Positions 2,478 through 32,328 of a stretch of 64,000 bases of DNA are shown here, one piece after another. This DNA comes from Haloarcula salinisoli (GTDB lineage: Archaea > Halobacteriota > Halobacteria > Halobacteriales > Haloarculaceae), in NCBI RefSeq assembly GCF_019599405.1, contig NZ_RKLQ01000001.1, forward strand, positions 744,001-808,000, given 5' to 3'. Numbering within the stretch: the stretch's first letter is position 1; each line of letters starts with the position of its first letter. The position numbers and the translations under genes were made by a program. The notes under the pieces are model-generated. The model was given only the letters and a program-made list of their open reading frames with translations. It had not been told where the DNA came from and made no database searches.

Positions 2478-3296
2478 TCAGGCCGGAGTGGGCGTCGGGG
2501 TCGCCGTGCCCGACGTACTGTTGTCGGCCGTGCTGTTGTCACTGCTGGTCTCGTTTCCGCTACTCGAGGACTGCTGATCCTGTATCCACTGGTCGTACTC
2601 GTCCTGTGGCATCACCTGGACGGTCCCGAGCATCTTGGAGTGGCCCGAGCCACAGTACTCCGCACAGTAGAGCTGGTAGGTGCCCGTCTCCGTCGGGACG
2701 GTCCGGAGCTGGTTGTACTGGCCCGGGAAGGCGTCGGCCTTCAGCCCGAGGCTGGGCACGTGGAACGCGTGGAGCCAGTCGGTGGACGTGACCCGCAAGT
2801 TCACTTCCTGATTGGCCGGCAACCGGAGCGTGCCCGTGGAACTCACCGCCGTCGACTGGTCGAAACTGGAGCCGTTGTAGTAGAACGTCCAGCCGTAGCG
2901 GTACGCTTCGACCTCGATGTGCTCGACCTCCTCGGTCTGGAGGTCCGCCTGATTGGTCGATTCGGCCGTCACGAAGGGGCTGGCCAGCACCTGGTAGGAC
3001 GCGATGCCGACGAACAGGAGGATGACGGCCGTCGCGACCGTCCAGGTGATCTCCAGTCGCCGGTTCTCCATCGTCGGCAGCGGCTCCTCTTGCTTGCGGA
3101 ACTTCCAGACGGTGTAGATGAGAATCCCCTCGACCAGCACGGTGATCGGGATGGCCACGTAGAGCAGATTCATGTTGAGGTTCCAGATCTGCTCGACCGT
3201 CGTGGAGGCCGATGGCTGTGCGGCGACGGGTTCGGCGGCAAGCGCGAGCAACGCAGCGCCGAACAGCGCGACCAGACCGGCGCGTCTCCGAGTCAT
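2478..3296 (-). CDS. coxB: Cytochrome c oxidase subunit II (CuA subunit)
   Basis: The 272-residue protein has a cleavable or retained N-terminal hydrophobic stretch, two membrane helices (about 35-60 and 85-110) and a periplasm-facing cupredoxin domain. CuA ligands are visible: His in WLHAFHVPSLGLKADAF, and CAEYCGSGHSKM with the two Cys, Glu, His and Met. The tail is rich in Ser, Thr, Asn and Asp, as often seen in haloarchaea. It receives electrons, probably from halocyanin, and passes them to subunit I, which is not in this window. The neighbouring heme A pathway gene at 6092 fits this role. A lower-GC insert separates the two. Confidence 0.95.
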   Translation of the reverse strand: MTRRRAGLVALFGAALLALAAEPVAAQPSASTTVEQIWNLNMNLLYVAIPITVLVEGILIYTVWKFRKQEEPLPTMENRRLEITWTVATAVILLFVGIASYQVLASPFVTAESTNQADLQTEEVEHIEVEAYRYGWTFYYNGSSFDQSTAVSSTGTLRLPANQEVNLRVTSTDWLHAFHVPSLGLKADAFPGQYNQLRTVPTETGTYQLYCAEYCGSGHSKMLGTVQVMPQDEYDQWIQDQQSSSSGNETSSDNSTADNSTSGTATPTPTPA

Positions 3297-3652
3297 GTGC
3301 GCGGCTTAGGATTTCGGGGATAAATAACTGCTGTCTCTGTCCTGTCCGACGGTACCGTTCGTGAGACCGCTTGGCTGTCCTATCTTTATACGGCGACATC
3401 AGCAACCGCCCTCGGTGGCCGTTCCGTCACGAGCATATACGACAGTGACAAAGATGGTCGGCGTGACTCCCGTGGTGCGGACTCGATCGACGAGGGCAAC
3501 GGGACGCTGGGAACATAAATCAACCATATCGACGCGGAGAGCGAGCACAGAGGACCGCGGTTCCAGCATCAACATTGCGTCGACAGCTGTACCGACGACG
3601 GACATATTTTCATATGAAAGAATCTAAAAGAAAGACAGTCGATACACTCTAC
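3297..3652. other. Intergenic stretch before the Tat-exported protein
   Basis: I see no convincing gene in these 356 bases. Several AT-rich TATA-like stretches are present: tctttatacg near 3382, gcatatacga near 3433 and catattttcata near 3602. The last lies about 45 bases before ATG 3653 and is the best promoter candidate for that gene. Short open frames on both strands here have no recognisable similarity and unremarkable composition. Confidence 0.5.
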
Positions 3653-5416
3653 ATGCCTCAATCCTCCCCTGATAGTCGACTTGCGGAGATGGAATCGCGA
3701 CTCGACCGACTCGAAGCGGAAAACGAAGCGCTCCGGGCTGCCCTCGACGACAGCGGTCGCCCAGCCATCTCTCGGCGGACAGCTCTGGGTGCCGTCGCCG
3801 GGCTGGCCGGTCTCGCATCGGTCGGCTCCACGAGCGCCGACATAAAGCAGTCTGACGACGGATACGACCTGGGCTCCGATGCGGCTCCCCTTGACGTCCG
3901 TGCCGGCGAGCTTCGGGCAGACAGTATCACTACTGACTCCCTCACGGGACCCGATGCTGGCAACTCCATCACGCAATCGCTCCGTGACGGCTACATCGTC
4001 GGCGTCACAAACGGGTATCAACTCACCGTGGACCCGAGAGACTACACGGATGCTGGGAGTGCCATCGATGATGTCAACAAGAAACTCGTGGCCAACATGA
4101 TTGGCCATAACATCGGTTTTGTCTACTTTAGCCCCTACGACCCGGACGGCAATATCCTCACAATCACGCAGCCGATTAAATTCGGGAGCGGCAAAGGCGA
4201 GGGGACCGTCCTGCCGCGAGGTTGGGGTTTCGGCGGCGGAGGCCACTCAGCCATACAGTGCAACGTCCCGCAGGGTGAGATGACGATGGAGGTTCGGGGC
4301 GACAAAAAAAACGGGAAGACCGTTGCACTACAGGGAACGTGGTTTGGGGGTTTCGTGCTTGATGGGGCGACCAGCGGCAGTCCGAACAACATCGGCGGTA
4401 TTGAATTAAACTTCCTTGGCGGCTTCTACATGAAAGACATCTTGCTCAAGGATTTTGACACTACAGGCAACTCTGATAATGATGATGTGCCAAACCCAAA
4501 GGGTGCATTTGTCTTCAACACGCGCTGTTTCAACTCTTTTGTTGACCACACGACGTATCAAAACTACTACGAAACCCCGAACACGGACGTGTGGGTCTTC
4601 CGCGACGACTACGACGCAGAAAAGAGTAACCCCGGCGAAATAGTCCTGGGTCACAATAACGGGACGTACTCTAAAACCAGTACAAATGGATTCAACAGTG
4701 GGGTTCGGATTGACTCGACTGACGCCGACACGATAACCTTCAACGGCCGCATCGAGGGTGTCGGCGGCGACGGCATGATATATCTCGACAACTCTGAGGC
4801 ATATCTCAATATCGGCTCGGGGGCAGAGTTGGACCGTATGGAGGACCAAGACGGCACGGGAACGCCGAAGGTGTACGCCAAGAACTGCTATGGCCTCTAC
4901 ATATCGCCGAATGCCTACATCAAGACAAACAAGACCGGAGCCCCTCTCGTCAAAATAGACAATATCACTCGGGGGTACATCATGCCGATTAACAACGATA
5001 TCGGGGACGAGACCAGCGCAAAAGCAATAGCCCTGAACGACGATTCAAGCCCTTCGAACCCGATTGTCGTTCCGCGTGAGACTATGCTGCCTGGCCCTGT
5101 TGAGTATCCAGACCCGAGCTGGCAGGGGATTGTCTACCCAGACGGCTGGCAACTCTACCGCGAGGGGACGACGGAGCTCTCTGCTGGCGGAGACACTCAG
5201 GCTAATCAGTTCGCGGGGAAACCCGAAGAGAGGGTCCGTGGCCCCCACGAAGGAGCCGGGTGGGCCGTCCAAAATGAAAAACAGAACGCCGGCCACGAGC
5301 CGGAATTCTACTGGAAGTTCGCCAACAACAACGCCCAGCGAGAGCTGTTCGTGCGCGACAACTCCACGTCTTCCACCGGGTCAATTACCATCGACTGGCA
5401 GATAGAGCGGAGCTAG
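3653..5416 (+). CDS. Tat-exported large protein, probable right-handed beta-helix fold, with N-terminal coiled coil
   Basis: The protein is 587 residues from ATG 3653. Residues 8-33 form heptads (LAEMESRLDRLEAENEALRAAL), followed at about 40 by a twin-arginine motif SRRTALGAVAGLAGLASVG ending in an Ala-rich cleavage region. The rest is Gly/Asn/Asp-rich with short alternating strands (for example GGFVLDG, GFYMKDILLKDFD, NSFVDHTTYQNYYE, FNGRIEGVGGDGMIYLDNSEAYL), which resembles parallel beta-helix proteins such as pectate lyase-like or tail-spike folds. I cannot name a catalytic site. A coiled coil ahead of a Tat signal is unusual. ATG 3614 is an alternative start. Base composition is less GC-rich than the neighbours (for example gacaaaaaaaacggg near 4301), which suggests transfer. 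Confidence 0.6.
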   Translation: MPQSSPDSRLAEMESRLDRLEAENEALRAALDDSGRPAISRRTALGAVAGLAGLASVGSTSADIKQSDDGYDLGSDAAPLDVRAGELRADSITTDSLTGPDAGNSITQSLRDGYIVGVTNGYQLTVDPRDYTDAGSAIDDVNKKLVANMIGHNIGFVYFSPYDPDGNILTITQPIKFGSGKGEGTVLPRGWGFGGGGHSAIQCNVPQGEMTMEVRGDKKNGKTVALQGTWFGGFVLDGATSGSPNNIGGIELNFLGGFYMKDILLKDFDTTGNSDNDDVPNPKGAFVFNTRCFNSFVDHTTYQNYYETPNTDVWVFRDDYDAEKSNPGEIVLGHNNGTYSKTSTNGFNSGVRIDSTDADTITFNGRIEGVGGDGMIYLDNSEAYLNIGSGAELDRMEDQDGTGTPKVYAKNCYGLYISPNAYIKTNKTGAPLVKIDNITRGYIMPINNDIGDETSAKAIALNDDSSPSNPIVVPRETMLPGPVEYPDPSWQGIVYPDGWQLYREGTTELSAGGDTQANQFAGKPEERVRGPHEGAGWAVQNEKQNAGHEPEFYWKFANNNAQRELFVRDNSTSSTGSITIDWQIERS

Positions 5417-5464
5417 TAAACCGCGTCGGCCATACGACATGAGGCTCTATGCAGTAGCCTGGCT

Positions 5465-5737
5465 ATGACCACCGACAACCGGCAGTTGCAGCAGACACGA
5501 GATGCCTTCGATAATGTCTATTTCAACCGGACGAACGCCTTCGATATTGCCTCGCATTACCCAAACACGCCCGTTCGCTGGCGGATTTGTGTTGACGGGA
5601 ACAGAGTGGTTCCCGAATACGATTCTGTTAGTTGGTACAATCATGCTGACGATTTCCGCGAGATAACCCAGAATGCTGGCGAGACAGTCGTGTTTGAGAC
5701 GCTAGAACAGCCGAGATACGTTTCCAATACGAATTAG
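5465..5737 (+). CDS. Hypothetical protein of the 3.6-6.0 kb insert
   Basis: This 90-residue protein follows the beta-helix gene by 48 bases. I do not recognise it. It is soluble, rich in Asn, Asp and aromatic residues, and looks beta-strand rich (VRWRICVDGNRVVPEYDSVSWYN). There is no signal peptide or membrane segment. Its position between the beta-helix protein and another small orphan suggests a three-gene unit, possibly phage-derived or a surface-structure accessory set; this is inference from context only. Confidence 0.6.
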   Translation: MTTDNRQLQQTRDAFDNVYFNRTNAFDIASHYPNTPVRWRICVDGNRVVPEYDSVSWYNHADDFREITQNAGETVVFETLEQPRYVSNTN

Positions 5738-5751
5738 CCCTAGCTTCGCGT

Positions 5752-6027
5752 GTGCACTCAACAAAGCAGGCGATGATTTGCAAGGCGACGATCGAGGCCA
5801 ACTCGACGACACTCGTTACCAGGTTTGCCGGCCTCCCCGGCGAGGAGTTCAAGCTGACCAACCTCACAGTCGATTCCAACCCGGACGCAGACGTCGAGTT
5901 CCAGAAGGTGTATGGCTGGCGCGAAGTCTCTAACGAGGACGGGAAACAGGCCGTCAAGATAAACGAGACGGCGGGGACCTCGTTCGACCTGTCGTGGGAA
6001 CTGCACAAACGACCCGCTGAGGACTGA
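5752..6027 (+). CDS. Hypothetical small beta-rich protein of the 3.6-6.0 kb insert
   Basis: The open frame starts with GTG 5752; ATG 5773 (MICKATIEANSTTLV) is equally plausible and gives 84 residues. I do not recognise the family. The pattern of alternating hydrophobic residues (KATIEANSTTLVTRFAGL, EEFKLTNLTVDSN) suggests a small beta-sandwich. No export signal is visible. It ends 64 bases before the heme synthase gene and is the last gene of the insert. Confidence 0.6.
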   Translation: MHSTKQAMICKATIEANSTTLVTRFAGLPGEEFKLTNLTVDSNPDADVEFQKVYGWREVSNEDGKQAVKINETAGTSFDLSWELHKRPAED

Positions 6028-6091
6028 GATCGCTGGTCGGAGGGCCACGAAAAGCGAGGAGTCTAAGTGTGCGCCGTCAAAGGGTGTAGCA

Positions 6092-7489
6092 ATGGCAGAG
6101 AGTCGGACCTTCACCGGGTTGTTGGCCGCGACGGCAGTAGGTGTCTATCTGCTGGTCATCGCCGGTGCAACGGCGACCATCACGGACGCCGTCACAGCCT
6201 GTAGCTCCTGGCCACTGTGTCAGGGGCCGGTGACGCTCGCCGAGCCCGACCTGCTGATAGCGCGCGGGCACCGCTTGATTGCGGCGGTCGTCGGAGCCCT
6301 CGCACTGGGAACGGTCGGGCTGGGCCTGCGGACGACGACGCGCAGACGGGTCAAAGCCGCTCTGCTCGTCGGTATAGCCCTCTATCCCGTCCAGATTGCG
6401 CTGGGTGCGTTCGTCGCGACCTCCGGGGCGACCGCCGTCCCCGGTGTCCATCTCGGCGTCGGCATGGCTATCTTCGTCTCGTTCGTGCTCGCGCTCGCGT
6501 GGCAGCTGGAGTTCGAGACGGGCGACGACGACGAGACGCCGGTCGAGGACCTCTCCCCGGCGCCGATACCCGACGAAGACGAGACGGACTCGCCGACCCC
6601 GGTCGCCGCGCTCTCGACGAAAGAGCGCGTGCTGGGCACCCTGGGCGCGTACTTCCGGCTGATGAAACCGCGACTGATGTGGCTGTTGTGTCTGGTCGCC
6701 GCCGCCGGGATGGCGCTGGCGGCCGGGCCCGCGCTGACGACCCGGACCGTCCTGCTGACCCTCGGTGGGGGCGTGCTGGCTATCGGCTCCTCGGGGACCT
6801 TCAACCACGTGCTCGAGCGCGATATCGACAAGCGGATGGACAGGACCTCGGACCGACCCATCGCGACCCACCGGATTCCGGTGGCCAACGCGATGGCCTT
6901 CGGCGTCGCGCTCGCGGCCGCAGCCCTCGTCCTGTTCTGGCAGGTCAACGTGCTGGCGGCGGCGCTGGGACTCACCGCAATCGTATTCTACAGCGTCATC
7001 TACACGCTTGTCCTGAAACCGAACACCGTCCAGAACACGGTCATCGGCGGGGCCGCAGGGGCGCTGCCGGCGCTCATCGGCTGGGTCGCCGTCGAGGGGT
7101 CGCTGGGGCTGCCCGGCATCGCGCTGGCCGGCGTCATCTTCCTGTGGACGCCCGCCCACTTCTACAACCTCGCGCTGGCGTACAAGGACGACTACGAGGC
7201 CGGCGGCTTCCCGATGATGCCGGTCGTCCGCGGCGAGACGGAGACACGCAAACACATCGTCTACTACCTGGGCGCGACGCTCGTCGGGTCGGGCGTCCTG
7301 GCGGCGCTGACATCGCTGGGCTGGCTGTACGCCCTGACCTCCGCGTCAGTGGGGGCCGTCTTCCTCTGGACAGTCATCCGGCTGCACCGCGAGCAGACCG
7401 AGGGGGCCGCCTTCCGGGCGTTCCACGCCTCGAACGCCTATCTGGGCCTGCTACTGGTGGCCATCGTCGTCGACTCACTCGCCCTATGA
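6092..7489 (+). CDS. ctaB: Heme O synthase (protoheme IX farnesyltransferase) with an N-terminal half-CtaA domain
   Basis: The 465-residue membrane protein has two parts. Residues 1-150 hold four helices with His in ARGHRLIAAVVGAL and GVHLGVGMAIF, like one four-helix half of heme A synthase CtaA (a full CtaA has two such halves). After an acidic linker (150-180) follows a complete UbiA-type farnesyltransferase with the motif FNHVLERDIDKRMDRTSDRP near 245 and the second Asp-rich loop YKDDYEAGGFPMMPV near 370. It converts heme B to heme O for the terminal oxidase. The stop overlaps the next gene (ATGA). Whether the CtaA half is active alone cannot be decided from sequence. Confidence 0.9.
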   Translation: MAESRTFTGLLAATAVGVYLLVIAGATATITDAVTACSSWPLCQGPVTLAEPDLLIARGHRLIAAVVGALALGTVGLGLRTTTRRRVKAALLVGIALYPVQIALGAFVATSGATAVPGVHLGVGMAIFVSFVLALAWQLEFETGDDDETPVEDLSPAPIPDEDETDSPTPVAALSTKERVLGTLGAYFRLMKPRLMWLLCLVAAAGMALAAGPALTTRTVLLTLGGGVLAIGSSGTFNHVLERDIDKRMDRTSDRPIATHRIPVANAMAFGVALAAAALVLFWQVNVLAAALGLTAIVFYSVIYTLVLKPNTVQNTVIGGAAGALPALIGWVAVEGSLGLPGIALAGVIFLWTPAHFYNLALAYKDDYEAGGFPMMPVVRGETETRKHIVYYLGATLVGSGVLAALTSLGWLYALTSASVGAVFLWTVIRLHREQTEGAAFRAFHASNAYLGLLLVAIVVDSLAL

Positions 7490-25518: not shown

Positions 25519-25608
25519 TATCTGCCCTAATTCTGGGGATAGGGACACGAATGGGACTCAACTGGTAACAGTGCGGCGCCAGCGTCTCAGAACGTGTCGG
25601 ACACAATC

Positions 25609-25992
25609 ATGGATCTGAAAACACTCATACAAGACGACGACGCGGTGTCGCCGGTCATCGGCGTCATCCTGATGGTGGCTATTACAGTCATCCTCGCGGC
25701 CGTCATCGCGACGTTCGTGCTCGGACTCGGCGATTCGCTCAGTAATCAGGCGCCCCAGGCGAGTTTCTCCTGTAACGACACTGGCGCGCTGATACACGAT
25801 GGCGGCGACGAGCTCAAATCTGACAACCTGGAAACTGGTGACGGGAGCACCGGCTTCAGTTTCGGCACGGGAGACACCTACTCGGCTGGCAGTACGGTGG
25901 TTCCTGAGTTCAACAACAGTGAAGCCCCACTCACTTGGTCGTCAGATGGCAGCTCCGCGACGCTGCGGAGTGAGTCCTGCTCGACCACATAA
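25609..25992 (+). CDS. Type IV pilin (archaeal PilA-like), copy 1
   Basis: The 127-residue prepilin begins [18 protein letters not shown] and continues with the conserved hydrophobic helix [18 protein letters not shown]. PibD is expected to cut just after DDDA. The body (residues 45-127) is Ser/Gly/Asp-rich and ends with a Cys near residue 124 and another in FSCNDTGA. Such pilins build adhesion pili in haloarchaea. ATG 25594 is an upstream alternative that would add five residues unlike the family. Copy 2 follows after 20 bases, so the pair may be one transcript. Confidence 0.92.
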
Positions 25993-26012
25993 AAAAAATC
26001 TAATATATTCAA

Positions 26013-26390
26013 ATGAATATCAAAACCTTACTCGCTGACGACGACGCAGTTTCACCGGTCATCGGTGTCATCCTGATGGTTGCAATCACGGTCATCCTCG
26101 CGGCCGTTATCGCCACCTTCGTGCTCGGACTCGGGGACTCGCTGAGCGACCAGGCGCCGCAGGCGAGTTTCACCTGTGAGGGGACGACATTAGTCCACGA
26201 CGGTGGCGACGAGCTCGACGGCGATAATCTGTACCTGGCGAACGACTCGAACAACGCACTGAGTAATTACGGGCCGGATACACTCTCCGCCGGCGACAAT
26301 GTCTCAGCCCCGTTCGAGGATGCTCAGGCACCACTCACCTGGCGTTCCGACGGCAGCTCGGCGACGCTCCGGTCCCAACCCTGCTCATAA
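26013..26390 (+). CDS. Type IV pilin (archaeal PilA-like), copy 2
   Basis: The 125-residue prepilin begins [18 protein letters not shown] and has the same hydrophobic helix. The first 50 residues and the last 25 ([20 protein letters not shown]) match copy 1 closely, while the centre differs. Two Cys (FTCEG and the C-terminal SQPCS) are placed as in copy 1 and may form a disulphide. AT-rich sequence (taatatattcaa) precedes the start. Confidence 0.92.
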
Positions 26391-26462
26391 GCTGATTTGA
26401 GCCGCCTCTCTGGCCACCTTTTCGGCCGCTATTTTTCATTCGACGCTCAGTGGCGACGCCAG

Positions 26463-26470
26463 GAATATAA
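26463..26470 (+). promoter_or_regulatory. TATA box of third pilin gene
   Basis: AATATAAG lies about 73 bases before ATG 26543 and matches the haloarchaeal TATA pattern seen also in the leaders at 27853, 28596 and 29388. Confidence 0.55.
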
Positions 26471-26542
26471 GATTCCAGTCACTTCCTAACAGTCATATAA
26501 TAGCGGAACTAACTCCCTAGCATTCGGTACGGGAACAGGAAT

Positions 26543-26992
26543 ATGGCTGTCAGCACTCTCCGGTCGGCCGACGACGCGGTCTCCCCAGTCGTCGGTGTCG
26601 TCCTGCTCTTTGCCATCAGCATCACCCTCGCAGCAGTCACGGCGGGTGTAGTCGTGGGCGCCGAAGAGGGACTCATCAGTTCGGCACCCACGGCGTCGTT
26701 CGAGTTCAACTACGACGCCGATGCCACCGGGAGCGCTGACCTCAACCACAGCGGTAACTCCGGTGCGCTGACGCTCTCCCACGTCGGCGGTGACACGATG
26801 GACGCGTCGAACCTGGAGGTCAGGGCCCAACCAGGCGGGACGGCCGGCGAAAGCGCGCTCGGATGGAGCGGGGAGGTAGCGGCTGGTTCGAGCGTGACCG
26901 TCACCGTCGACGCCGGCGCGACGGTCAGGCTCGTCCACTCTACGGACGGCAGTTCGACCACGGTCGCGACCTGGGACGCCGATTCGGCCTAG
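26543..26992 (+). CDS. Divergent type IV pilin, copy 3
   Basis: The 149-residue protein has the motif [27 protein letters not shown], a diverged form of the pilin helix, and a long Thr/Gly-rich body with no Cys pair. It is clearly less related to the other five pilins and may be a minor pilin. It has its own promoter. Confidence 0.85.
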   Translation: MAVSTLRSADDAVSPVVGVVLLFAISITLAAVTAGVVVGAEEGLISSAPTASFEFNYDADATGSADLNHSGNSGALTLSHVGGDTMDASNLEVRAQPGGTAGESALGWSGEVAAGSSVTVTVDAGATVRLVHSTDGSSTTVATWDADSA

Positions 26993-27142
26993 TCCAGCCG
27001 CTGACAGCGGGAATTTGACGCCTGGACGGACTAACCCGTCAGTTGAACTTTAATTATTCCAATCGACCATCAACATTATTAGCTCCTGTCTCTCACTGCG
27101 TGGTAGAATGGCACTGCCGCGGGGTCAAGGTGAGCGTCGCAG

Positions 27143-27715
27143 ATGAGCCAGCAGCTTCGACGTGCGGAATCCGAGGACGGCCTCTCGAACGAGGAGATAT
27201 TCGACGTGCTCCAGAACGAGCGCCGTCGGCACGTCCTCCAGTATCTCCGCCAGCATGGCGGGCCGGTATCTCTCGGTGAGCTCGCAGACTACGTCGCCGC
27301 CGCGGAGTACGACTGTCTCACCGACGAAGTCACGAGTGCCCAGCGCAAGCGTGTCTACACCACCCTCCAGCAGTCCCACCTCTCCCAGATGGACGAGGTG
27401 GGTATCATCGACTACGATAGCGACGAGGGCGTCATCACCACGACCGACCAGACCGAGGAGCTGACGGTTTACCTGGAGATTGTCCCCGAGGGAGAGTTCC
27501 CCTGGCGCGAGTACTACCTCTCCTTTGGCGCGATCAGCCTCGCCGTCGTGACGGTGCTGTGGGTCGGCGTCTACCCCTTCACGCTTATTCCCCACCTCGT
27601 CTGGGCGACCCTGTTTGCTGTCGTGCTCACTATCTCGGCGCTCTATCATACGCTGGTCGCCCGGGAGATGACGCTGACCGAGTTCGCCAACGACGACGGC
27701 CGCGACGACGGCTAA
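27143..27715 (+). CDS. DUF7344-type winged-helix protein with two membrane helices
   Basis: The 190-residue protein has an N-terminal winged helix (NEEIFDVLQNERRRHVLQYL, then VSLGELADYVAAAEYD, residues 15-95) and a C-terminal pair of helices (about 132-170). This type is common in haloarchaea and is thought to be a membrane-bound regulator. It stands between pilin copies 3 and 4, so control of pilin genes is a reasonable inference. TATA-like CTTTAATTATT lies near 27049. Confidence 0.8.
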   Translation: MSQQLRRAESEDGLSNEEIFDVLQNERRRHVLQYLRQHGGPVSLGELADYVAAAEYDCLTDEVTSAQRKRVYTTLQQSHLSQMDEVGIIDYDSDEGVITTTDQTEELTVYLEIVPEGEFPWREYYLSFGAISLAVVTVLWVGVYPFTLIPHLVWATLFAVVLTISALYHTLVAREMTLTEFANDDGRDDG

Positions 27716-27817
27716 GCGCCCCGCCAATCAACTATGATAGTTCCGGGTGTCGAACCCCGATAGATCGCTTTCTTCGTTGAAACTGAAATCCGGCAGTACA
27801 GTGTACTCTTGACGCCG

Positions 27818-28117
27818 TTCAAGGCGGTGCTGAACGCGTGAAACGTAGGGTGGGTATAAGGGTGGACACCACATGGTAAGTAGATAACACACCCTCGGGG
27901 TCCACCTCACGGGTTAGAGGTGCCTGCTCAGACACACGCGGTGTGTTGGAGAACACAACACATGGATCTCAAACAACTAATCCAGGACGACGACGCAGTC
28001 TCACCGGTCATCGGGGTCATTCTGATGGTCGCGATTACAGTTATCCTCGCAGCCGTCATCGCGAGTTTCGTACTCGGGCTTGGCGACTCGGCTGGCGACG
28101 CCGCACCATCGGTCAGT
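27818..28117 (+). repeat. Direct repeat A: pilin leader plus N-terminal coding block
   Basis: This 300-base block recurs at 28561-28860 with no gaps and only 12 substitutions that I count (six in the 144 bases before the ATG, six in the first 156 coding bases). It begins at TTCAAGGCGG and ends in the codons after the pilin helix. Beyond it the two genes are unrelated until their last 60 coding bases. Confidence 0.9.
27853..27961 (+). promoter_or_regulatory. Promoter and structured leader of pilin copy 4
   Basis: TATA-like GGTATAAG (27853-27860) lies 101 bases before ATG 27962. The expected leader of about 77 bases forms hairpin 1 (CACCTC 27903-27908 with GAGGTG 27917-27922) and hairpin 2 (ACACAC 27932-27937, loop GCG, GTGTGT 27941-27946). 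Hairpin 2 ends two bases before the GGAG ribosome-binding site (27948-27951). Role in translational control is inference. Confidence 0.65.
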
Positions 28118-28333
28118 GTGGATTGTAACACGCAAGGCAATTATATGAACCACACTGGCGGCGCCGAGCTCCAGCATAATAACCTGAACGCCAGTACGGG
28201 TAGCCTCGATAAATCTTCCGGCGAGAATTACACCGCAGGTGACGTTATTATCAGCAGTGACGTGAGCGACGATACCCAGCTCGTCTGGAACAACCCCGAC
28301 GGCAGCAGCTCCTCGATCATCGCCGAGTGCTAA
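27962..28333 (+). CDS. Type IV pilin (archaeal PilA-like), copy 4
   Basis: The 123-residue prepilin begins [18 protein letters not shown] and has the same helix as copies 1, 2, 5 and 6, with [17 protein letters not shown] following. The C-terminus reads [15 protein letters not shown]; the Cys there can pair with that in SVDCNTQ. The middle (residues about 55-105) is unlike copy 5. GGAG 10 bases upstream supports this ATG over the upstream frame at 27920. Confidence 0.93.
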
Positions 28334-28393
28334 CGGACAGTCCCTAACCGATTTTCGTTTTTTGACCGTCAGTCCCGCAGTGACAACACCGAC
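28283..28393 (+). repeat. Conserved 3' block of pilin copy 4 (also at copy 5)
   Basis: From TCTGGAACAACCCCGACGG to past the stop, including the T-rich stretch ATTTTCGTTTTTTGA and the following AGTCCCGCAGTGACAAC, this block recurs at about 29026-29137. The T-run directly after the gene is likely a terminator for archaeal RNA polymerase. Confidence 0.75.
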
Positions 28394-28704
28394 AGACGAG
28401 TCAGCCTGAGACCTCTATCAATAGTGACCCGTTCGACGAGACAGACTGGTTGCGCCGCACGCAGTCACCGTTTCGACGGAGCCTGGCTGATACGGTCACT
28501 CCGACAAACAACTTCTCCTCTCAACTCAAAATCTGGCATTATTAGTCTTTAGAAGCCGATTTCAAGGCGGTGCTGAACGCGTGAAACGTAGGGTGGGTAT
28601 AAGCGTGGACGCCACATGGGAAGTAGATAACACACCCTCGGGGTCCACCTCACGGGTTAGAGGTGCCTGCCCAGACACACGCGGTGTGTTGGAGAACACA
28701 ATAT
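28334..28704. other. Intergenic between pilin copies 4 and 5
   Basis: It holds the terminator-like T-run (about 28352-28365), a gene-free stretch of roughly 170 bases with no recognisable content, and the repeated promoter and structured leader of copy 5 from 28561. Confidence 0.6.
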
Positions 28705-28860
28705 ATGGATATCAAACAACTAATCCAGGACGACGACGCAGTCTCGCCGGTCATCGGGGTCATTCTGATGGTCGCGATTACAGTTATCCTCGCAGCCGTT
28801 ATTGCGAGTTTCGTACTCGGGCTCGGTGACTCGGCTGGCGACGCCGCACCATCGGTCAGT
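28561..28860 (+). repeat. Direct repeat B: pilin leader plus N-terminal coding block
   Basis: This is the second copy of the 300-base block at 27818-28117, in the same orientation, 743 bases away. Such long, close, direct repeats favour gene conversion or deletion of the intervening pilin gene. Confidence 0.9.
28596..28704 (+). promoter_or_regulatory. Promoter and structured leader of pilin copy 5
   Basis: TATA-like GGTATAAG (28596-28603) and both hairpins are kept (hairpin 2 at 28675-28689). All six substitutions relative to copy 4 fall outside the hairpin stems. GGAG lies 10 bases before ATG 28705. Confidence 0.65.
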
Positions 28861-29076
28861 ACGGAGTGTAACCTCGGTGGCAGCGGTGACACGTATATGA
28901 ATCACACTGGCGGTAGTGAGCTGGACAACAGCTCTATCGAGATCAACGGCGGTACTCTTGATGGTGCCGACAATTATACTGCCGGTTCCATCATTGCCAC
29001 TGGCGTCGATAGCGATTCCCAACTCATCTGGAACAACCCCGACGGCGGCAGCTCCTCGGTCATCGCCGAGTGCTAA
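28705..29076 (+). CDS. Type IV pilin (archaeal PilA-like), copy 5
   Basis: The 123-residue prepilin begins [18 protein letters not shown]. Its first 52 residues and last 17 (WNNPDGGSSSVIAEC) match copy 4 almost exactly, while residues about 55-105 (GGSGDTYMNHTGGSELDNSS and on) differ. The shared NHTGG motif and the Cys at each end suggest a common fold with a variable surface. Confidence 0.93.
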   Translation: MDIKQLIQDDDAVSPVIGVILMVAITVILAAVIASFVLGLGDSAGDAAPSVSTECNLGGSGDTYMNHTGGSELDNSSIEINGGTLDGADNYTAGSIIATGVDSDSQLIWNNPDGGSSSVIAEC

Positions 29077-29493
29077 CGGACAGTCGCTACCCAATTTTCG
29101 TTTTTTTGAACGCAAGTCCCGCAGTGACAACGCCGACGCTCGGCCAGGCGCCCGCGCCATTGATGTGACGTTGCGACGACGCGCGCCGCGCGACGACAAC
29201 GACACAGGCCCCTGTGATACTGTCTCATGACAGCTGTTCTCTCAGCAACTATGATTTTGCCCGCTTGTAGCGGGGACCGACAACCCAAACCGCCAGACCC
29301 GACGGTCACTGTCTCAAACCCGATTCCGGTCGGACAGTCGCCCTTGAGAGGGTTCAAGCCACCCCTGAATCAATGAAGAATCGGGTGAATATAAGACTGG
29401 ATAGCTCATGGTACCCAGACAGCACACTCGCGGGGCTCCCCCAAGGTGGGGTGGCAGTCGGAGACACGCGATGTGTCATAAAAAGGGCAAACT
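29077..29493. other. Intergenic between pilin copies 5 and 6
   Basis: It starts with the copied T-run terminator (ATTTTCGTTTTTTTGAA, 29094-29110), continues with about 270 bases where I see no gene or RNA, and ends with the copy 6 promoter and leader. Confidence 0.6.
29388..29493 (+). promoter_or_regulatory. Promoter and structured leader of pilin copy 6, covarying with copies 4 and 5
   Basis: TATA-like GAATATAAG ends at 29395, 98 bases before ATG 29494. Hairpin 1 pairs CCCC (29439-29442) with GGGG (29448-29451) and hairpin 2 pairs GACAC (29463-29467) with GTGTC (29473-29477), keeping the GCG start of the loop. The sequence has diverged from copies 4 and 5 but both stems remain. Confidence 0.6.
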
Positions 29494-29877
29494 ATGGACA
29501 TCAAACAACTTATCCAGGACGACGACGCAGTATCACCGGTCATCGGGGTCATCCTGATGGTCGCTATCACAGTTATCCTCGCGGCCGTCATCGCGAGCTT
29601 CGTACTCGGGCTCGGTGACTCTGCCGGAGACGCTGCACCAACGCTCAGTGTCGAGTGTAACGTCGCGAACGACTACATCAACCATACCGGTGGTGACGAA
29701 CTCAACGGTGACGAGCTTACACTCCAGAACGGTGATGGCGGTACTATTAACTCAGGCACGTACAACGCTGGAGATCAGCTAGCGAACAGTTCGACTGGCA
29801 CAACTGTTAGTGGTGACGAACAAATCCAGTGGGCAAACCCCGACGGTAGCAGCACCTCCATCATCGCGGAGTGCTAA
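29494..29877 (+). CDS. Type IV pilin (archaeal PilA-like), copy 6
   Basis: The 127-residue prepilin begins [18 protein letters not shown], followed by the same helix and [19 protein letters not shown]. It ends [15 protein letters not shown], like copies 4 and 5. The centre ([20 protein letters not shown]) again differs. DNA identity to copies 4 and 5 is lower, so it is an older duplicate. Confidence 0.93.
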
Positions 29878-30599: not shown

Positions 30600-30720
30600 G
30601 GACAAAAATAGCGGGAGATGAACTGTCCCGTGTGCTGAGACTTCCTGTGGATTCCGCTAACACACCCGCGACATCATCGGTATGGTCGCCTCAAGTGATG
30701 TCCCGGGCCACAGTCGGGGC
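30600..30720 (-). ncRNA. Candidate omega RNA (TnpB guide RNA) at the element right end
   Basis: TnpB guide RNAs overlap the 3' end of tnpB and run to the element end. Here the stretch after the stop (30691 downward) contains GGAATCC, then CAGGAAGTCTCAGCACAC, then the hairpin at 30612-30630. Sense overlapping RNAs at this place are known for haloarchaeal IS1341 elements. The exact end and guide cannot be set from sequence alone. Confidence 0.4.
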
Positions 30721-32000
30721 GTCCACGGCCCCCGATGCCTGCCGTCGTGCCTTCCGAACTGGTGGAAGATTGTCGAGAGCAGGCACATTCCCGTCTTGCG
30801 TTTTGTTGACACCTTTCGCAGCGATATTGACGCTTGCACTGCGGTCGCTGTGGTCTTGATGCTCGCAGCTTCGGCATTTGAATCGCTTTTTCCTCCGATT
30901 CGCTCGTTCTGTATGTCCACACATCGGACACTGTTGACTTGTGTATTCGGGATCAATCCATCCTGTCGGGATACCTTCGAACGACCCCTTGTACGACGTG
31001 TAGTACTGGATCGCTCGAAACGGGAGCCGATGCAAGCGTCGGTTCATCCGCGTGCCGCAGTCGATACTGTCGCGCATCTCTTTGAGGTCTTCAAAGACGA
31101 TACACGGCTGCACGAACTGTTGGCACCATTCTACGATATGTCGGGAGACTTTGTGGAGTCGGTCACGGACAAACCGCTTTTCGCACCCTTCCAGCGTGCT
31201 GTGGATGCTATTTTTCCCAGCCTTCTGTACACGCTTTCGAATCGTCAAGTACCGATGGCGTTCGAACTTGATTTCCGGGAAGTCGATAACCAACGTCTCC
31301 CTGACACCGTCTTGGGCAAGCGCGGCCAAAGCCACGTTGTCCTCGTTCACGTCCACACCGACCACTGTCTGCGAATCCTCCTTTGCGCGCACAGTCTGGT
31401 CAGTGTTGGTGACGCTGACGTGAAGTTCGGGGTTATCGTCGCGCCAGATTGCTTCGGCGGTACTGATCTTCCACTCGTCGCTGGCTAGTGCGGTCTTGAG
31501 AATTTCGAGGTGGGCTTCGTTACCGTTGAGGACTCCTTTGACATGTTTGTAGGGTTTCACACTAATTCTGAACGCTATCTCTCCATCGTCGGTCAGCGAA
31601 AGGGTGTACCCTTCCCCGTAGTTCGCTCTGAGAGGGTAAGTCCCGTCCTTGGTGTGACTCGGCTGGCCGAAGTCGTCGTACTCGTGGTAATTCTCCATCG
31701 CGTCGAGTGCCTTGGCCACAACACGTTGGGTCGTGTTCTTTACGAGACCAGCGTCGTTGGCTATTCGGTCGGGAATTTCATTCCAGTCCACGCCCTGTTT
31801 GGCAAGCCGGATGGTCTCGTTGTAGACTGACCGAGCTTCGAGTGTCGCATCGTACAGCAGACGCTCGTTGTCACTTTCGACCGCGAGCTGGAATACAAGC
31901 GTCTTAATTAATGTCGTTTCGCCTGACATATCTGCTGAGTGTTGGATTCATACCGGCGTGCGATTTCCCTGAATGACTCCAACGAGAGTGGTTGTGCTCG
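30605..32000 (-). mobile_element. IS1341-type element (TnpB only), ends not determined
   Basis: The element holds one gene, tnpB, without tnpA. The right side (low coordinates) has a hairpin CGGGA...TCCCG at 30612-30630, and the left side (31930-32010) contains the tnpB promoter (TTTTATTTAAATA on the minus strand near 32005-32017). No terminal inverted repeats are expected for the IS200/IS605 family. The bounds given are estimates. It lies about 190 bases from the initiator tRNA gene. Confidence 0.5.
30691..31929 (-). CDS. tnpB: TnpB RNA-guided endonuclease of an IS1341-type element
   Basis: The 412-residue protein has an intact split RuvC site: D193 in GVDVNEDN, E280 in IVFEDLKEM and D362 in HSDRSASVN. 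The zinc ribbon has C334, C337, C352 and C355. The N-terminal wedge/REC part and the C-terminal extension (RRQASGAVDAPT) are as in haloarchaeal IS1341 proteins. It lies in the opposite direction to hpt. No frameshift or missing motif is seen, so it may be active. Confidence 0.93.
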   Translation of the reverse strand: MSGETTLIKTLVFQLAVESDNERLLYDATLEARSVYNETIRLAKQGVDWNEIPDRIANDAGLVKNTTQRVVAKALDAMENYHEYDDFGQPSHTKDGTYPLRANYGEGYTLSLTDDGEIAFRISVKPYKHVKGVLNGNEAHLEILKTALASDEWKISTAEAIWRDDNPELHVSVTNTDQTVRAKEDSQTVVGVDVNEDNVALAALAQDGVRETLVIDFPEIKFERHRYLTIRKRVQKAGKNSIHSTLEGCEKRFVRDRLHKVSRHIVEWCQQFVQPCIVFEDLKEMRDSIDCGTRMNRRLHRLPFRAIQYYTSYKGSFEGIPTGWIDPEYTSQQCPMCGHTERANRRKKRFKCRSCEHQDHSDRSASVNIAAKGVNKTQDGNVPALDNLPPVRKARRQASGAVDAPTVARDIT

Positions 32001-32185
32001 TAATGGTATTTAAATAAAAGGCTGCCCACACTCAACTACTCAGTTAGAAAAACCCCCAGAAAACGGGTTTTCAGCCGTCCAAACTACGATAGCACGAGTA
32101 GTCCGCCAGATTACGCTAACCGAGACTCACTGCTACTTTGGGAGACTGAACTGCTCGAAGAAATGTAAAACGACCGCCAGGTTGA

Positions 32186-32260
32186 TAGCGGGAGGTAGAT
32201 TTGAACTACCGATCTGCGGGTTATGAGCCCGCCGGAATCTCCTGGCTATCCCATCCCGCT
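32186..32260 (-). tRNA. Initiator tRNA-Met (CAT)
   Basis: On the minus strand the 75-base gene starts AGCGGGATGGGATAGCC and ends CTCCCGCTA. The acceptor stem begins with A1-U72, the anticodon stem has three G-C pairs (GGGCTCATAACCC), and the anticodon is CAT; these are features of the archaeal initiator. The T stem reads GGTAG...CTACC. CCA is not encoded. Downstream T-rich sequence GTTTTACATTTC is a likely terminator. Confidence 0.95.
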
Positions 32261-32328
32261 ACCTGTTCATACCCGAGTGCCCTCATTAAGGCTTGTGATT
32301 CGACTGCCGTCCGTGAATTCTTGTCGCG

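What the first reader, a model, noticed from the sequence alone, without database searches (positions are those of the whole stretch)
3653..6027. Three-gene lower-GC insert between oxidase genes
A Tat-exported large protein with a coiled-coil leader and beta-helix-like body, and two small orphans, sit between coxB and the heme A pathway gene. Composition and lack of known relatives suggest transfer, possibly from a virus or from a surface-structure locus. A long coiled coil in front of a Tat signal is odd and may serve oligomerisation before export.
Basis: partly seen in the sequence, partly recalled or inferred. Interest (0 to 1): 0.55.

Follow-up and report, generated by a model that had tools for sequence, protein, structure and literature searches.

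The report
Foreign surface-protein cassette with viral piece
An archaeon, probably a salt-lover, carries between two respiratory-chain genes an acquired three-gene cassette: a large, probably exported protein, a loose copy of that protein family's end domain, and a free-standing piece related to a particle protein of salt-lake viruses, which hints that cells and viruses trade parts for handling the cell surface.

Summary
In detail: three genes (587, 90 and 91 residues) of lower GC fill an insert of about 2.7 kb between coxB and a ctaB-type gene. Of 29 other measurable genomes of the genus, 26 have only 65-194 bp there and three have other inserts, so the spacer is an insertion site. The genes are not orphans. 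The large protein has a 34% relative in the same genome and a distant one in a polysaccharide cluster of another genome. Gene 3 is a detached copy of that relative's C-terminal domain (43%). Gene 2 is a stand-alone homologue of the N-terminal domain of gp20, a virion protein of Haloferax tailed virus 1 (36%; profile E 4e-10); elsewhere I found that domain only in viruses, apart from one marginal match. Best reading: an acquired surface cassette whose coiled-coil/Tat-led, perhaps beta-helical protein is exported to bind or trim glycan, with two small partners. Export, fold and partnership are inferred: both structure predictions failed (pLDDT 35 and 47), and profile evidence for a pectate-lyase-type helix is weak. 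Moderate interest; a new variant of a known kind.

The parts
2478..3296 (-). coxB, cytochrome c oxidase subunit II; left flank, not part of the insert
   Evidence: Pfam COX2 1.8e-16 and COX2_TM 4.9e-15
3338..6042 (.). The insert, absent from 26 of 29 other measurable genomes of the genus; no exact repeat of 9 or more bases shared by its two ends, no tRNA, no integrase among its three genes
   Evidence: (ends 3301-3460 and 5941-6080 compared)
3653..5416 (+). Large protein (587 aa): coiled-coil leader, Tat signal, perhaps beta-helical body, C-terminal tip
3680..3745 (+). Coiled-coil heptads of the leader (residues 10-31; a/d positions L M L L N L L), upstream of the Tat signal
   Evidence: heptad score reached by 0 of 5000 shuffles; helix 6-30 in the low-confidence model, pLDDT about 57-71 there
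3770..3838 (+). Tat signal SRRTALGAVAGLAGLASVGSTSA (residues 40-62), possible cleavage after residue 62
   Evidence: by eye; motif rules recalled, no predictor run
3839..5161 (+). Body (residues 63-503), shared over nearly its whole length with the paralogue and the G349 relative; its start aligns weakly with the cap of Pect-lyase_RHGA_epim proteins
   Evidence: suggestive only
5162..5413 (+). C-terminal tip of the large protein (residues 504-587); its first 23 residues match the paralogue, the rest has diverged
   Evidence: rank 33 of 5001 against a profile of the C-terminal domain
5465..5737 (+). Gene 2 (90 aa): stand-alone homologue of the N-terminal domain of HFTV1 gp20
5752..6027 (+). Gene 3 (91 aa; alternative ATG start at 5773): stand-alone copy of the C-terminal domain of the paralogue
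   Evidence: 43% over 87 aa, E 1e-18
6092..7489 (+). ctaB-type (UbiA family) gene; its first 200 residues look like ctaA (recalled, no Pfam match at 1e-5); right flank
   Evidence: Pfam UbiA 4.4e-62, residues 201-445

Best explanation
The insert is an acquired three-gene surface cassette that landed in an insertion-prone spacer. The large protein oligomerises through its leader coil and folds in the cytoplasm, is exported by the Tat route as a folded fibre, loses coil and signal on cleavage, and binds or trims glycan at the cell surface or in the capsule, much as phage tailspikes do from the outside. Gene 3, a free copy of the family's C-terminal domain, works as an assembly partner or cap of the fibre. 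Gene 2, a free-standing relative of a virion-protein domain, is a further binding module that leaves with the complex, since by eye neither small protein has a signal of its own. Shown: insertion, the three homologies, the leader's coil pattern and RR motif. Inferred: fold (about 0.65), export (about 0.9), glycan function (about 0.5), co-export of the small partners (about 0.3).
For: Short spacer in 26 of 29 other measurable genomes of the genus, and low GC. The paralogue in the same genome joins in one chain what the window splits: body plus gene-3 domain. The G349 relative lies between glycosyltransferases, a polysaccharide flippase and a sulfatase (Pfam for one glycosyltransferase, the flippase and the sulfatase, the rest by eye). 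The N-terminal module of that relative recurs in 19 haloarchaeal plasmid records, some of sister strains; in the two that I opened, annotated glycosyltransferases lie within about 6 kb. The same spacer holds a PKD-domain gene in G228 and polysaccharide genes in G391 and G336. Gene 2 is a gp20-domain homologue, and HFTV1 gp20 was found in virions by mass spectrometry (PMC12494034, passages). Coil-then-Tat leaders, by eye, also precede repeat-rich proteins in L004 and L005, whose best Pfam match is a beta-roll model below its cut-off. Tat carriage of signal-less partners is shown for PaoABC (PMC4273604, abstract and opening).
Against: No Pfam, NCBIfam or PHROGs family reaches its cut-off for the large protein; the best was DUF3138 at E 0.0014, 17.9 bits against a cut-off of 27.3. 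Both structure predictions failed. Comparison with eight pectate-lyase-type proteins gave 17% probability as a family and at most 3.4% one by one; a viral beta-helix protein gave 0.7% and the L007 protein 0.1%. No glycosyltransferase lies in this insert. Nothing shows that the genes are expressed or that their products meet; genes 2 and 3 may stay in the cytoplasm. A profile of the three known members found no further full-length member in 371 genomes, so no conserved gene association could be tested. In G349 the relative has no Tat signal (by eye). The one other insert whose own GC was computed is not low (G391, 0.647). Asn at a heptad 'a' position favours dimers (recalled), whereas tailspikes are trimers.
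Confidence: 0.46

Rival explanations
1. Virus debris: the insert is a fragment of a halovirus host-recognition module (fibre, fibre-tip domain, gp20 domain) left behind by a decayed provirus, now without function.
For: Gene 2 is cut to about the first domain of gp20 and lacks the other 320 or so residues; its relatives are virus genes. One such viral contig also encodes a beta-helix protein that matches a PHROGs tail spike family (L106).
Against: None of the insert's three genes matches an integrase, capsid, portal or terminase. All three frames are open. The large protein has a Tat leader, which a virion fibre does not need. Four viral-contig scans with it, its paralogue, the G349 relative or their alignment found no relative; in phage records it had only matches at E 3-6 and the paralogue none. 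The G349 relative was not searched in phage records.
Confidence: 0.21
2. Polysaccharide-locus spill-over: the genes came from a capsule or exopolysaccharide cluster, and the gp20 likeness of gene 2 only reflects a small surface-binding domain that viruses borrowed from cells.
For: The G349 relative and the relatives of its N-terminal module lie in or near such clusters. The same spacer holds glycosyltransferases, a flippase and a polysaccharide deacetylase in G391, and by eye the same set in G336.
Against: With a profile of the domain, 2 of 361 genomes of the class matched at E<=0.01: the window's own, which is in the profile, and one marginal match with a stop. Eight viral contigs carry it, one of them HFTV1 itself. 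Virus to cell is the simpler direction.
Confidence: 0.22
3. Displaced-tip cassette: gene 3 is the family's older C-terminal tip, pushed aside when the large protein acquired a new one, and is kept as a silent store for switching specificity.
For: Gene 3 matches the paralogue's tip at 43%, while the large protein's own tip matches the paralogue by BLAST only over its first 23 residues.
Against: The large protein's tip still scores weakly as the same domain (rank 33 of 5001 with its shuffles; pairwise E 9e-4 without composition correction, 0.075 with it), so divergence after duplication suffices. No repeat of 14 or more bases links the two tip copies.
Confidence: 0.1

Closest known systems
WceF of Pantoea stewartii (PMC7949094, abstract and outline seen)
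   Same: A cell-encoded tailspike-like beta-helix protein tied to a surface polysaccharide; shows that a tailspike fold can serve the cell's own glycan.
   Different: WceF lies in its EPS cluster and has a crystal structure and a proven activity. Here fold and activity are inferred, the gene lies between respiratory genes, has a coil-Tat leader and comes with two small genes. No sequence comparison was made.
gp20 of Haloferax tailed virus 1 (Haloferuviridae; PMC12494034, passages and outline seen)
   Same: Gene 2 is homologous to about its first 95 residues (36% over 76 aa, residues 19-93 of gp20).
   Different: gp20 has 418 residues and sits behind the major capsid gene; gene 2 has only the first domain and sits in a cellular locus. 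The passages report gp20 in virions by mass spectrometry and give it no place in the structure.
Haloarchaeal Pect-lyase_RHGA_epim (PF12708) proteins
   Same: Some are Tat-led and lie beside flippase- or sulfatase-like genes (by eye); cap helix then strands.
   Different: The large protein does not match PF12708; hhalign probability only 17%.
PaoABC Tat hitchhiker complex of E. coli (PMC4273604, abstract and opening seen)
   Same: One signal-bearing subunit and two partners without signals.
   Different: A heterotrimeric enzyme, not compared by sequence; co-export is shown there and only proposed here.
Phage fibre chaperones such as that of T5 pb1 and of Alteromonas phage A5 (PMC4690869, PMC10579305; search listing only)
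   Same: A C-terminal or separate small part that helps a fibre form.
   Different: No sequence relation tested; gene 3 is a copy of the family's own C-terminal domain.

Membership tests
Right-handed beta-helix / pectate-lyase-like proteins (PF12708, PF13229) | Significant profile match | tested here: not met
   No such hit for the window protein, its paralogue or the G349 relative
Right-handed beta-helix / pectate-lyase-like proteins (PF12708, PF13229) | Beta-helix fold | tested here: inconclusive
   AlphaFold2 pLDDT 35; hhalign probability 17%, E 0.0015, against E 0.33 for the reversed control
HFTV1 gp20 family | Homologous N-terminal domain | tested here: met
   36% over 76 aa, E 4e-9; profile E 3.7e-10, 35.5 bits against at most 8.5 bits for 2000 shuffles
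HFTV1 gp20 family | Full-length protein with the C-terminal part | tested here: not met
   Gene 2 ends after 90 residues; not filed as a gp20
Tat substrates | Twin arginine before an uncharged stretch | tested here: met
   SRRTALGAVAGLAGLASVGSTSA, residues 40-62, by eye; no predictor run
Tat substrates | Tat-dependent export | not testable with these tools
   needs an experiment
Provirus | Integrase, capsid, portal or terminase genes; attachment repeats | tested here: not met
   None among the three genes; no exact end repeats of 9 bases or more in the stretches compared; only tRNA of the window is at 32184
Surface-polysaccharide locus | Glycosyltransferase or flippase genes in the same stretch | tested here: not met
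   Not in this insert; met for the G349 relative and for the G391 insert
Known anti-virus defence systems (PADLOC) | Profile match | tested here: not met
   No match for the three proteins at E<=1

The most novel reading that the evidence does not exclude
The cassette is a receptor-masking shield: the exported fibre carries gene 2, a copy of a virion-protein domain, to the cell surface, where it occupies the glycan that HFTV1-like viruses bind, so that the cell uses a piece of the virus against its adsorption.
Probability: 0.07. Interest if true: 0.8.

Novelty: new variant of a known kind. Interest (0 to 1): 0.42.

Why it matters
It gives a cellular stand-alone homologue of a halovirus virion domain of unknown role (HFTV1 gp20), beside a gene for an apparently exported large protein; no other clear cellular copy surfaced in the 361 genomes searched with the domain profile. 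If the three products assemble, two questions become testable: what gp20 binds, and whether archaea put fibres together in the cytoplasm with a disposable coil ahead of the Tat signal. It also marks the coxB-ctaB spacer as a place where this genus takes up genes, several of them for the surface.

Tried and rejected
Chimaera of a host leader and a foreign body: GC by segment suggested it (0.67 in 3653-3840 against 0.53 in 4171-5000), but third-position GC does not differ (39/61 against 362/526, p 0.47); rejected. Beta-trefoil fold for gene 2: a profile hit on a designed trefoil (E 0.00087; first seen with gp20) rests on repeats of one short match and is not used. Structure search: not run, because both models were too poor. 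The large protein, its paralogue or the G349 relative in viruses: four viral-contig scans and two phage searches gave no relative. Gene 2 alone as query found nothing in viral contigs; gp20 and the joint alignment did. Large protein on plasmids: none. Relatives of the large protein in genome contigs: two scans, none. Gene 3 in phages: one match at E 8, ignored. Solved structures for genes 2 and 3 and for the large protein: nothing usable. Leader alone: none on plasmids, only E 0.03-0.6 elsewhere in its own genome. Sigma-70-type promoter and terminator scans and Rfam: nothing usable. Weak gene-2 matches in 27 other genomes (E 0.005-0.09) were not counted as relatives.

HFTV1 gp20 was looked up in two papers.

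Full report
What is there. Three plus-strand genes fill a spacer between coxB, which reads leftwards, and a UbiA-type (ctaB-like) gene that reads rightwards. The stretch is a real insert. Against the nearest genus-mate (G394, about 91-92% identical in both flanking genes) identity stops at base 3337 and resumes at about 6043. Thirty-two genomes of the genus, the window's own included, have both flanking genes; in 30 the spacing can be measured. It is 65-194 bp in 26 and above 1 kb in four: the window's genome (2.75 kb), G228 (1.3 kb), G391 (7.9 kb) and G336 (8.4 kb). In the other two, G397 and G398, the genes lie on separate draft contigs; beside the ctaB-type gene G397 has a TnpB gene and G398 a PQQ-propeller gene and, by eye, ABC transporter genes. 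So this spacer between divergent genes takes up foreign DNA repeatedly. The insert's GC is 0.562 against 0.650 +- 0.036, low but not unique, since a pilin region at 27.7-32.5 kb is as low. The G391 insert has ordinary GC (0.647). No exact end repeats of 9 or more bases in the stretches compared, no repeat pair at the two ends, and no nearby tRNA were found.

The large protein. It has 587 residues: a leader with about three clean heptads (residues 10-31), a twin-arginine signal (residues 40-62, by eye), a body and a C-terminal tip. In a sample of 391 genomes of the class, seven had a match at E<=0.001; only two, its own and G349, matched through the body, and five matched in the leader alone. 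Its own genome holds a paralogue (34%; L009:9654-11291) with a Tat-like signal but, by eye, no such coil. G349 holds a distant relative without a Tat signal, in a run of glycosyltransferases with a flippase and a sulfatase. A profile of these three found no further full-length member in 371 genomes, only partial matches in three at E 4e-4 to 0.009. The N-terminal module of the G349 protein recurs in 19 haloarchaeal plasmid records, some of sister strains; the two that I opened show annotated glycosyltransferases within about 6 kb. No Pfam, NCBIfam or PHROGs family reaches a cut-off for the body (paralogue and G349 relative, with one weak PHROGs match at E 0.009 for the latter). Comparison with eight haloarchaeal Pect-lyase_RHGA_epim proteins aligned the expected starting region (cap helix, then strands) with E 0.0015 and 17% probability, against E 0.33 for the reversed control; single proteins gave 3.4% at most, a viral beta-helix protein 0.7%. 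That is suggestive, no more. The AlphaFold2 model made without relatives has pLDDT 35 and was not used.

Gene 3. It is not an orphan: 43% identical over 87 residues to the C-terminal domain of the paralogue (E 1e-18), and that paralogue is its only other match in 391 genomes at E<=0.01. The large protein's own tip resembles the paralogue by BLAST for 23 residues and then drifts; against a profile of the domain it ranks 33rd among itself and 5000 shuffles. So the locus carries two versions of the tip, one attached and diverged, one free and closer to the paralogue's. That the attached tip is the same domain is only weakly supported.

Gene 2. tblastn in 50,697 phage records found three: two records of HFTV1 and one uncultured large phage, all over residues 13-86 or 13-85 (E 0.006-0.008). 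The HFTV1 gene is gp20, directly behind the major capsid gene; pairwise E is 4e-9. A profile of six viral gp20 proteins gives gene 2 E 3.7e-10 and 35.5 bits; the best of 2000 shuffles has 8.5 bits, and no unrelated ORF of the window passes 3.1 bits (one of the six rows ran past its gene). The phage's protein is a gp20 relative over most of its length (27% over 96%) and by eye follows two fibre-like genes. In viral contigs eight loci carry the domain, one of them HFTV1 itself; gene 2 alone was too distant a query. Among 361 genomes of the class only the window's own and one marginal match with a stop do. HFTV1 gp20 was detected in virions by mass spectrometry; the passages that I read give it no place in the structure (PMC12494034). 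The structure prediction of gene 2 with eight viral rows failed (pLDDT 47).

How it most likely works. By eye neither small protein has a signal of its own. Tat moves folded proteins and is known to carry signal-less partners (PaoABC, PMC4273604, abstract). I therefore propose that the leader coil brings the large chains together in the cytoplasm, that gene 3 caps or helps the fibre fold, that gene 2 rides along, and that the complex works on surface glycan. A cell-encoded tailspike-like protein with such a job is known: WceF (PMC7949094, abstract). Coil-then-Tat leaders in front of other proteins, two with repeats whose best Pfam match is a beta-roll model below its cut-off (L004, L005) and one beside a gene that looks like a sulfatase (L007, by eye), make early oligomerisation plausible as a wider habit. 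Every step beyond the homologies is inference.

Other inserts at the same place. G228: a PKD-domain gene whose product has, by eye, a signal and a dockerin-like end. G391: two family-2 glycosyltransferases, a flippase, a polysaccharide deacetylase and, by eye, dockerin-like proteins; G336 looks the same by eye. This fits a site that collects surface genes, though so few cases cannot prove a preference.

Verdict. Transfer is well supported, orphan status is not, and the two proposed sources each fit a different gene. The surprise is the free-standing virion domain next to an apparently exported large protein; the shield reading is the boldest one left open, at about 7%. On checking, I lowered the best explanation from 0.48 to 0.46 and the fold from 0.7 to 0.65, because the one-by-one profile comparisons were weaker than the family comparison and the profile of three found no new member.

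Noticed in passing
25594-29877: A run of six genes with archaeal type IV pilin N-termini (by eye; Pilin_N confirmed by Pfam for the three that were scanned) in a low-GC stretch; may be a pilin-variant array.
   Followed up: partly
30691-31929: A TnpB/OrfB-like gene (Cas12f1-like TNB domain) next to the pilin run, about 250 bases from the only tRNA that ARAGORN found in the window (Met, 32184-32261).
   Followed up: partly
L074 1310-9174 and L075 (G391, G336): 8 kb inserts in the same coxB-ctaB spacer: glycosyltransferases, flippase, polysaccharide deacetylase, and by eye proteins with dockerin-like ends and long Asp-Gly-rich repeats.
   Followed up: partly
L106 6939-8783: A viral contig with a gp20 relative also encodes a 614-aa beta-helix protein (Pfam Beta_helix 3.3e-14; PHROGs tail spike 8e-5).
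   Followed up: partly
L004 1324-2898, L005 1390-2961: Coiled coil plus Tat-like leader in front of a repeat protein (Pfam LbR_Ice_bind below cut-off) that by eye resembles trimeric adhesin heads.
   Followed up: partly
window 3617-3629 and L009 9619-9631: The window gene and its paralogue share the 13-mer AAAGAATYTAAAA, 23-24 bases before their start codons, perhaps a common promoter.
   Followed up: no
G000 C1:814919-815029 and 819265-819501 (L135, L130): Two further pectate-lyase-like matches in the same genome, 65-70 kb from the insert; the first lies in an open frame with a Tat-like start.
   Followed up: no
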